Position numbers and translations under genes: made by a program. From positions 1-64,000 of the forward strand of contig JADGNZ010000009.1 in the NCBI GenBank assembly GCA_017883205.1: a DNA stretch of 64,000 bases, given 5' to 3'. How positions within the stretch are numbered: position 1 is the stretch's first letter; the number at the start of each line of letters is the position of its first letter. The DNA comes from Thermoanaerobaculia bacterium. Lineage in GTDB: Bacteria > Acidobacteriota > Thermoanaerobaculia > Gp7-AA8. This document shows positions 21,310 through 48,201 of this stretch, piece by piece. The notes beneath the pieces were generated by a model. The model saw nothing but the letters and a program-made list of their open reading frames with translations. It searched no databases and was not told the origin of the DNA.

Positions 21310-22071
21310 CGTTTAACACTCGCTCAAAACACGGCGCCATCCGCAAGGGTGGCGCCGTTCTGAGTCAATGGACAATGGACAATGGACAATTGACAACGGA
21401 ACGGAGATCAGACTCTGATCTCTGATACCCAGCATAGTGGATGCGAACCGCAGCATCGTGGGTGCAAAACCCAGCATCGTGGGTGCAAAACCCAGCATCG
21501 TGGGTGCAAAACCTAGCATCGTGGCTGCAAGACCTAGCGTCGTGGGTGCGAAACCTAGCACCGGAGCTACAAAACCTAGCATCGGCGGTACAAAACCTAG
21601 CACCGGCGCTACAGAACCTAGCACCGGCGCTGCGAAACCTAGCACCGGCGCTACAAAACCTAGCACCGGCGCTGCGAAACCTAGCACCGGCGCTACAAAA
21701 CCCAGCACCGGCGCTGCAAAACCTAGCATCGGCGCTACAAAACCTTGCATCGGTGCTACAAAACCTAGCACCGGGACTGCGAAACCTAGCACCGGGGGTG
21801 TGAAACCCATCATCGGGGCTGCGAAGCGCACCATCGATGGATCGAAATACAACGTCGATGGTTCAGAATGCACCATCGATGGATCAAAACGCATCGTCGA
21901 TGATTCCAAACGCACAGTCGATGGGTCGAAACCACTCATCAATGATTCAAACCAATCTCTGATCTCCGTTTCTGATCTCTGATCTCTGCTCCTGATCTCT
22001 GATTCACTCCCTTCAACGCTACAGCTTTGTAACCGTAGCAACTCCTGCATCTGTTGGAATCCACTTCGGTA
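21310..22071. other. 762-bp gene-free stretch holding repeat array A
   Basis: Between the DUF11 gene and the efflux operon. It contains a short direct repeat of ATGGACA words (about 21367-21396), GATCTCTGAT words on both flanks (21404-21427 and 21954-22005), and the 25-unit array. Long frames exist on both strands only because the unit has few stops; I see no real gene. Confidence 0.8.
21428..21952. repeat. array A: 25 tandem units of exactly 21 bp with imperfect palindrome
   Basis: 525 bases divide into 25 consecutive 21-bp units with no insertion or deletion. The units drift along the array: early ones have the core AGCATCGTGGGTGC followed by AAAA; middle ones TAGCACCGGCGCTA (palindrome with one mismatch pair) followed by CAAAA; the last six have cores such as CCATCGATGG (perfect palindrome). 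Spacers stay A-rich. Copies are not identical, so the period is kept while sequence changes. Possible roles are phased protein-binding sites or an RNA hairpin series. The + frame would encode a KPSTGAT-type heptad repeat without a convincing start. Confidence 0.92.
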
Positions 22072-38210: not shown

Positions 38211-38890
38211 CGGCCGGAACCGCTCGTGGATCGCGATGACCACCAGGCAATCGAGCCACGTCACGGCAACCGGGCAACCGCGTCGCCATCCTCCTGCCGC
38301 GAGTGCGGAGTCAGACTTTCTTGAGTCCGGACTTAAAACCGATGAATCGGGACTCACGCCTTTTGAGTTGGTACTCACATCATCCGAGTCCGTACTCACG
38401 CCCGGTGAGTCGGTACTCACATCTCGTGAGTCGGTACTCACGTCCGGTGAGTCGGTACTCAAGTGACGTGAGTCCGGACTCACAACGTTTGAGCCGGTAC
38501 TCACATTTTGTGAGTCCGTACTCATATTCTTTGAGTCGCGACTCATATTTTTTGAGTCCGTACTCAAGTTCGGCGAGTCCGTACTCAAGTTCGGTGAGTC
38601 CGTACTCAAGTTCGGTGAATCCGTACTCATATTTTTTGAGTACGTACTCATATTTTTTGAGTCGGTACTCAAATTTGAAATCGACCGGGGGGCCGTCGGA
38701 GGGTCAGAATCATCTGATTTTGGTAGAAAACTGGCCAGAATCGACAGAGTGGTGCCCCAACTGACCTCAGTTATTCCAGCGAGTGACTGTTTCATCGCCT
38801 CTAGCGTAGCCAGCAGCGGCGTTGCGATCCCAAGCTGGAGCCGGCCAAGGATCGCGGCTGAGCTGGCGCCGCTCTTGAAGCACCCGGCTC
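38211..38890. other. 680-bp gene-free stretch holding repeat array B
   Basis: Between pcm and the membrane-anchored TPR-like gene. Besides the array (38323-38679) it has about 110 and 210 bases of ordinary-looking DNA on the two sides. The long minus-strand frame crossing it and pcm is a by-product of the stop-poor repeat and of pcm codon bias. Confidence 0.8.
38323..38679. repeat. array B: 17 tandem units of exactly 21 bp with the palindrome GAGT-N4-ACTC
   Basis: 357 bases divide into 17 units of 21 bp. Each starts with a 12-bp dyad, mostly GAGTCCGTACTC or GAGTCGGTACTC, once the perfect palindrome GAGTACGTACTC and once GAGTCGCGACTC; then nine variable bases (such as ATATTTTTT, AAGTTCGGT or ACGTCCGGT). 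A degenerate 22-base unit precedes the array. The arms are kept while spacers vary, as expected for binding sites or hairpins rather than coding sequence; one + frame is broken by a stop in unit 7. Confidence 0.93.
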
Positions 38891-47214: not shown

Positions 47215-48201
47215 AGTTCCTCCATTGGGGGTCCTAAAATTTTCGGCAGGCGATCGTACGCAAGGTAATTGGAATCTTACGTGAACGAATGGTGCCAGCG
47301 TTGGGTTGCCGGGCTGCTGGAGGTCGCGGGTGTGGGTGTCGGGGGTCCCGGTCGAAATGCTCGCTACCCCATCAAGCCAGCCCCCAGGACGGTCAGGACG
47401 TCCGTTCATCGCTGACGCAATCGTCGCGTCTAGGGGCGGCGTTTGAGGGTTCGATCTACGAATAACTACCATCCCGATGCAATCGCCGGTTGCGGAGATC
47501 GCAAGTCATGATCATTCAATAGGTTACGAGTGCCAAACGAACGAAGGTCTGACCCCGCTGCTTTCAGGCTGCTTTCATGACACCGCCATTCGAAGACACG
47601 AAGCGTTCGTACAGCTTCATGCTCTCGGAAACGCGAGGCCAGAATCCCTCACGAGCAAGATTCGCCTTCCGCGGCGAGGAGTCCCCGACTCTCTTGCGAG
47701 AAGTGCCGGGCTTCTTGCGAGAGGTGCCGGGGCTTCTTGCGAGAAGTGCCGGGGCTTCTTGCGAGAAGCGCCGGGCTTCTTGCGAGAAGCGCCGGGCTTC
47801 TTGCGAGAAGTGCAGGGACTTCTTGCGAGAAGCGCCGGGCTTCTTGCGAGAAGTGCCGGGGCTTCTTGCGAGAAGTGCCGGGCTTCTTGCGAGAAGTGCC
47901 GGGCTTCTTGCGAGAAGTGCCGGGCTTCTTGCGAGAAGCGCCGGGCTTCTTGCGAGAAGCGCCGGGCTTCTTGCGAGAAGCGCCGGGCTTCTTGCGAGAA
48001 GTGCCGGGCTTCTTGCGAGAAGCGCCGGGCTTCTTGCGAGAAGTGCCGGGCTTCTTGCGAGAAGTGCCGGGGGTTCTTGCGAGAAGCGCCGGGCTTCTTG
48101 CGAGAAGTGCCGGGGGTTCTTGCGAGAAGCCCGGAGTCTCTTGCGAGAACTACGTGAGTGAGAACACAAGGGTTCGCAAGACACAGCTTCCTTAGCCTCT
48201 C
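47215..48201. other. 987-bp gene-free stretch holding repeat array C
   Basis: Between the M13 gene and the XRE regulator, both on the minus strand. The first 475 bases show no recognised gene; frames there are not conserved-looking. The rest is the array. Long frames exist in three + frames and one minus frame through the array because the unit lacks stops. Confidence 0.8.
47691..48151. repeat. array C: 22 tandem units of about 21 bp with palindromic CTTCTTGCGAGAAG core
   Basis: The word TTGCGAG occurs 22 times at a step of 21 bp, or 22 bp where an extra G is present. The 14-bp core CTTCTTGCGAGAAG is a palindrome with one wobble pair; the rest of the unit is GC-rich (TGCCGGG or CGCCGGG). Copies are nearly identical, so the array is young or homogenised, unlike arrays A and B. 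The first, second and last units are degenerate. Confidence 0.95.

What the first reader, a model, noticed from the sequence alone, without database searches (positions are those of the whole stretch)
21428..21952. Array A drifts in sequence but keeps an exact 21-bp frame and compensating palindromes
Across 25 units the core changes from AGCATCGTGGGTGC to TAGCACCGGCGCTA to CCATCGATGG, and in many units both arms change together. Paired change with fixed period suggests selection on structure or dyad symmetry. The flanks also carry GATCTCTGAT words on both sides.
Basis: seen in the sequence. Interest (0 to 1): 0.7.

Follow-up and report, generated by a model that had tools for sequence, protein, structure and literature searches.

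The report
Genome-wide 21-bp palindromic satellite arrays
The repeat is one of probably about 200 short non-coding arrays in one bacterium's genome that share an exact 21-base step (two turns of DNA) but not a sequence; this is a known, unexplained class of bacterial satellite DNA, here unusually abundant and often palindromic.

Summary
Window 21427-21951 is 25 contiguous 21-bp units with no length change. Each carries an imperfect 14-bp dyad. Arm covariation beats shuffled columns (72.7% paired cells against 67.0; 0/500 shuffles), but only 3 of 7 pairs show two-sided change, and most of the signal is the difference between three sequence blocks (units 1-6, 7-19, 20-25; within-block p=0.04).

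The larger finding is the context. Array A is one of 38 period-21 hits in 1.04 Mb of this genome (one or two probably not genuine). Nearly all are intergenic. They differ in sequence and dyad strength, but not in period. Dyads are real across 48 arrays (21 at p<0.05, about 2.4 expected), yet about half lack one, and they show no strand preference. Two congeners have no array at this site: one is a clean empty site, the other holds a different palindromic element.

This matches the "constant repeat size, variable sequence" tandem repeats of Subirana and Messeguer (20-21 nt class), whose function is unknown. I read it as a fast-turnover non-coding satellite held at two helical turns. Paired arm changes can come from palindrome template switching as well as selection. 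A new, dense member of a known kind.

The parts
21427..21951 (.). Array A: 25 head-to-tail 21-bp units, each with an imperfect 14-bp dyad (columns 4-17) and a 7-bp A-rich spacer
21427..21552 (.). Block 1, units 1-6 (CCCAGCATCGTGGGTGCAAAA type)
21553..21825 (.). Block 2, units 7-19 (CCTAGCACCGGCGCTACAAAA type), the strongest dyad: 5.1 of 7 pairs
21826..21951 (.). Block 3, units 20-25 (GCACCATCGATGGATCGAAAC type), the type that matches many other arrays of the same genome
21400..21412 (.). Left arm of a 13-bp perfect inverted repeat that brackets the array (AACGGAGATCAGA, GATCTCT heptamer material)
21958..21970 (.). Right arm of the bracketing inverted repeat (TCTGATCTCCGTT)
21366..21400 (+). 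5 copies of the heptamer CAATGGA, part of the material absent from the empty site
   Evidence: comparison with L034
21331..21358 (+). Hairpin of the probable intrinsic terminator of the upstream DUF11 gene; a like hairpin is kept in both congeners, so the array is not the terminator
22021..22033 (+). ACAGCTTTGTAAC leader upstream of the OEP gene, conserved in both congeners; right-hand boundary of the inserted segment
38323..38679 (.). Array B: about 17 units of 21 bp, dyad TGAGTCCGTACTCA, unrelated in sequence to A
47692..48149 (.). Array C: about 22 units of 21-22 bp, dyad CTTCTTGCGAGAAG, unrelated in sequence to A and B

Best explanation
Array A is a non-coding bacterial minisatellite, one of probably about 200 in this Thermoanaerobaculia genome that share a fixed 21-bp step and not a sequence. 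Shown here: it lies in the spacer between a terminated DUF11 gene and the OEP/HlyD/RND efflux operon; a congener has a clean empty site at the same place, so it was gained here or lost there; arrays are most alike in the middle and decay at the edges; some carry 2-unit (42-bp) higher-order repeats; indels that break the 21-bp frame are rare. Inferred: arrays grow locally by replication slippage or unequal exchange of whole units. The step stays at 21 bp because that is two helical turns (2 x 10.5), so every unit presents the same face and any intrinsic bend adds up; the likely reader is a low-specificity nucleoid or bending protein, or the DNA structure itself, rather than an RNA or a sequence-specific factor. 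The palindromes are made and kept partly by template switching between arms, which changes both arms together.
For: Many arrays with one period: 38 period-21 hits in 1.04 Mb, other periods nearly absent. Sequences mostly unrelated between loci, with one family of 16. Mean identity 0.676 at lag 21 against 0.28 and 0.27 at lags 20 and 22. Roughly 40 indels against roughly 1800 substitutions inside arrays, with 20- and 22-bp excursions equally common. Nearly all intergenic, with no strong gene-orientation bias. Adjacent-unit identity 0.81 in the centre, 0.66 at edges (p=1e-14), and ten arrays with 42-bp higher-order repeats. Empty site in L034/G001, and a different element at the same site in L033/G002. 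Dyad excess: 0.497 against 0.441 +/- 0.006, 21/48 arrays p<0.05. Folding z is equal on both strands (-1.70, -1.71), with no sense-strand preference. In array A the dyad runs through the centre (pair 9-12 covaries, pair 10-11 is kept), which a hairpin loop would not need. Model bend 85 degrees per 126 bp against 49 in ordinary spacers; it depends on the period, not on the sequence.
Against: No protein, binding or expression data. The bend result follows from the period alone and is no independent proof. About half of the arrays have no dyad, and congener G002 and others also have 22-bp and 43-bp (21+22) arrays, so the step is 21 +/- 1, not exactly 21. The neutral indel rate of this lineage was not measured, so the size of the indel deficit is uncertain. 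The sampled contigs were partly chosen because they carry A-like arrays, so the density is somewhat inflated.
Confidence: 0.55

Rival explanations
1. Purely mutational satellite: slippage plus palindrome template switching, with a mutational bias to 21 bp and no function at all.
For: Edge decay and 42-bp higher-order repeats, absence from orthologous sites, patchy presence among congeners, covariation mainly between blocks. Template switching makes compensatory arm changes (PMC8794818).
Against: Slippage as usually understood does not single out 21 bp. Other periods are nearly absent and indels are rare in strongly diverged arrays.
Confidence: 0.27
2. RNA-level element: each unit is a short hairpin in a transcript (terminator chain, mRNA 3' stabiliser or small RNA / RNA sponge).
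For: About half of the arrays fold better than column-permuted copies. 52-nt satellites of Bacillus coagulans are transcribed (PMC8625621, PMC8161180).
Against: No strand preference in folding. Array A follows a terminator hairpin kept in congeners without the array. No clear enrichment downstream of genes. In array A the innermost dyad pair, inside any hairpin loop, is conserved and the next one covaries. No Rfam match.
Confidence: 0.15
3. Tandem operators or iterons for a dedicated sequence-specific dimeric regulator of the downstream efflux operon.
For: Dyad sites spaced by two helical turns, next to an OEP/HlyD/RND operon.
Against: The unit sequence changes within the array and between loci. 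Similar arrays lie in many other spacers of the genome. Congeners keep the operon without the array. No plasmid match.
Confidence: 0.03

Closest known systems
Constant-size, variable-sequence tandem repeats of bacteria, 20-21 nt class (Subirana and Messeguer 2021, PMC8161180; satellites survey 2019, PMC6749651)
   Same: 20-21 bp step, several unrelated sequence families in one genome, species-specific, non-coding, patchy among relatives, function unknown; those authors note that the length is two helical turns
   Different: Here in Thermoanaerobaculia (Acidobacteriota), at roughly 30-36 arrays per Mb and about 10% of non-coding DNA. Dyad symmetry of the units is measured here; the words palindrome and hairpin do not occur in that paper's main text, though it notes short sequences and their reverse within 52-nt repeats.
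Tandem repeats of archaeal Borg elements (PMC9879509)
   Same: Abundant, rapidly changing tandem repeats, some with units of 18-21 nt, partly intergenic, virtually absent in the host genomes
   Different: Borg units vary in length and are almost perfect copies; here the length is fixed and adjacent units differ by about 25%
REP/BIME and REPIN palindromes (PMC3733652, PMC3116915)
   Same: Short extragenic palindromes present at many sites
   Different: REPs are dispersed copies of a few sequence types; here the palindromes are in long head-to-tail arrays with array-specific sequence
Plasmid iterons (own knowledge)
   Same: Direct repeats of 17-22 bp, about two helical turns apart
   Different: No Rep gene next to array A, variable units, many chromosomal loci

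Membership tests
Constant-size variable-sequence bacterial tandem repeats, 20-21 nt class | Constant 20-21 bp repeat size across many loci of one genome | tested here: met
Constant-size variable-sequence bacterial tandem repeats, 20-21 nt class | Different repeat sequence between arrays, several families per genome | tested here: met
   66 of 1128 pairs related, 5 families, the rest unrelated
[quoted passage not shown]
   intergenic; no codon-phase pattern of variation; relatives also use 22- and 43-bp periods
Constant-size variable-sequence bacterial tandem repeats, 20-21 nt class | Species-specific repeat sequences | tested here: met
   array A matches 0 of 40 relatives by blastn
CRISPR array | Near-identical repeats separated by unique spacers | tested here: not met
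   the spacer part is repeated as well as the dyad
Plasmid iterons / regulator operators | One conserved binding sequence next to a rep or regulator gene | tested here: not met
Intrinsic terminators / RNA hairpin elements | Strand-specific structure oriented with transcription | tested here: not met
REP/BIME | GTAG- or CGTC-tagged palindrome of a conserved sequence type | not tested
   No search for the tags or for a REP-associated transposase was made

The most novel reading that the evidence does not exclude
The genome has a dedicated process that makes or reads DNA in steps of two helical turns regardless of sequence: a protein that polymerises along one face of the helix (or an enzyme that copies 21-nt steps), for which palindromic units are the preferred but not obligatory substrate. 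Gain and loss of this factor would explain why one congener is full of arrays and another shows none.
Probability: 0.2. Interest if true: 0.85.

Novelty: new member of a known kind. Interest (0 to 1): 0.5.

Why it matters
A repeat whose length is fixed while its sequence is free points to something in the cell that measures DNA by helical turns. This genome is a dense example, with two congeners that differ (one rich in arrays, one with none found), which makes the open question of why bacterial satellites keep 20-22 bp testable by comparing gene content and by binding assays.

Tried and rejected
Coding origin: array A has 2 fully open frames, but arrays show no codon-phase variation, the ORF has no Pfam hit above its curated cut-off, and relatives use 22 and 43 bp. 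Origin from heptamers (21 = 3 x 7): no excess identity at lags 7 or 14. The GATCTCT flanks as part of the array: the heptamer is dispersed independently. Selection for curved sequence: actual arrays bend no more than column-permuted ones. Conserved leader or mobile element carrying the array: some arrays share 80-150 bp of flank and an inverted-repeat element lies near several, but array A has neither and the copies of the element fetched from other genomes have no array beside them. Rfam gave nothing for the window or for two other loci. Plasmids gave no match.

Full report
What was checked. Window 21427-21951 holds 25 units of exactly 21 bp in one frame. With the dyad at columns 4-10 / 11-17, the count of structure pairs gives 72.7% paired cells against 67.0% in shuffled columns, 17 against 6.5 cells changed on both sides and a covariation score of 0.246 against 0.140, each reached by 0 of 500 shuffles. 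Structures slid by 1-3 columns score lower on these three measures. My own test with rotation of one arm, which keeps neighbour similarity, agrees. The strength is modest: three of seven pairs show two-sided change, and the array consists of three blocks (units 1-6, 7-19, 20-25), so much of the signal is two block boundaries; within blocks p=0.04.

Context in the genome. The nearest named genomes are Thermoanaerobaculia / Acidobacteriota MAGs. A blastn search with array A found 39 matching stretches in its own genome and none in 40 relatives. An identity-at-lag scan of 1.04 Mb of the same genome (four complete contigs plus the window) found 38 period-21 hits, with other fundamental periods nearly absent. 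One hit (C31:109992) is a GC-rich coding-type repeat with a better lag of 24, and one or two others are weak. The contigs were partly chosen because they carry A-like arrays, so 30-36 arrays per Mb, or roughly 200 in the genome, is an estimate. Hits cover about 15 kb of 147 kb of non-coding DNA. The window itself holds three: A, B (38323-38679, dyad TGAGTCCGTACTCA) and C (47692-48149, dyad CTTCTTGCGAGAAG), unrelated in sequence.

Phase. Mean identity inside arrays is 0.676 at lag 21, 0.648 at 42 and 0.587 at 63, but 0.28 and 0.27 at lags 20 and 22. A path model found 80 lag switches, roughly 40 indels because an indel usually makes two, against 3611 mismatching comparisons, roughly 1800 substitutions because most count twice. 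Lags 20 and 22 are used equally. Congener G002 and family member G009 have arrays of 21, 22 and 43 (21+22) bp; G016 has one of 43 bp; the own genome also has one of 43 bp (L220). The step is therefore 21 with a tolerance of one base.

Dyads. Across 48 arrays the best dyad score averages 0.497 against 0.441 +/- 0.006 after permuting columns, and 21 arrays pass p<0.05 where about 2.4 are expected. Covariation beyond column composition is positive in 30 of 41 arrays. RNA folding of six units is better than for column-permuted arrays by z=-1.70 on the plus and -1.71 on the minus strand, and there is no sense-strand preference among 18 arrays between co-directional genes. About half of the arrays show nothing. 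When the centre is chosen on the outer pairs only, inner pairs are weakly complementary overall (0.325 and 0.277 against about 0.253) and more so in the nine arrays with a significant outer dyad (0.42 and 0.45). This leans to a DNA-level symmetry, but is not decisive.

Dynamics. Adjacent units are more alike in array centres (0.81) than at edges (0.66, p=1e-14), and ten arrays have 42-bp higher-order repeats. This is the usual pattern of satellites that grow by exchange or slippage of whole units. Five groups of arrays share unit sequences, the largest with 16 members including A. The orthologous site was read in both congeners. L034 (100% identical to G001 over the compared stretch) has DUF11 gene, terminator hairpin, then directly the ACAGCTTTGTAAC leader of the OEP gene: an empty site. 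L033 (identical to G002) has a different palindromic element of about 300 bp there. G001 shows no 21-bp array in 246 kb sampled, G002 about ten of 21, 22 or 43 bp in 237 kb.

Function. The neighbours of array A are an alanine dehydrogenase, a DUF11 protein and an OEP/HlyD/RND efflux operon. The terminator hairpin and the leader are conserved without the array, so the array is needed for neither. Arrays show no strong gene-orientation bias and no codon-phase pattern. A wedge-model calculation (parameters from memory, Bolshoy type) predicts 85 degrees of cumulative bend per 126 bp, against 49 in ordinary spacers and 33-57 when the period is changed by one or two bases; permuting the columns does not lower it. 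So the period makes the bend and the sequence is not tuned for it. This fits a helical-phase explanation but does not prove it.

Known work. [quoted passage not shown] survey PMC6749651; transcription PMC8625621). All features of the 20-21 nt class that could be tested are met here. New here are the density in this lineage, the measured dyad symmetry and its lack of strand bias, the empty site, and the contrast between congeners. Compensatory arm changes without selection are documented for template switching (PMC8794818, PMC8604942; abstracts).

Limits. No expression or binding data were available. Arrays lie at some contig ends (C49 start, C57 end, near the C2 end), so long homogeneous arrays are probably under-represented. 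The neutral indel rate is not known.

Noticed in passing
G000 C1:215912-216020, C2:111322-111373, C2:160043 and 160793, C1:280575; loci L197-L226: A MITE-like inverted-repeat element with ends TAGCCCGCATTTCTCACA / TGTGAGAAATGCGGGCTA. At up to 2 mismatches: 40 ends in this genome, 85 in congener G002, none in congener G001. In 1.04 Mb, 5 of 7 ends lie within 206 bp of a 21-bp array, pointing outward, although the copies fetched from other genomes have no array beside them.
   Followed up: partly
C2:160674-160829, C1:306678-306826, C54:15762-15881, C20:68329-68437: A flank of about 110-150 bp, 81-95% identical, at the same end of four arrays of the A-type family; it looks like a conserved array end or leader.
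   Followed up: partly
window 21416-21425, 21973-22003; C1:16316, C2:165223, C49:128669: The heptamer GATCTCT forms its own dispersed short arrays, sometimes as inverted pairs.
   Followed up: partly
L033, between its DUF11 and OEP genes (upstream of 10001): In congener G002 the site of array A holds a different palindromic element of about 300 bp with nested inverted repeats (GCCGCGGAGCGGCG, CCCACAGCGTGAGCTGTGGG); partial copies elsewhere on the contig.
   Followed up: no
L013 from about 10400 and L024 before about 9760: An upstream region of about 227 bp, 85% identical, beside two arrays, with a promoter-like TTGACA and a hairpin-rich leader; no Rfam family matches.
   Followed up: partly
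C1:27211, C1:74452, C1:327430: C1:74452 and C1:327430 share 295 bp of flank at 92%, and C1:27211 shares the unit type of C1:74452, which suggests that a gene plus its array was duplicated.
   Followed up: no
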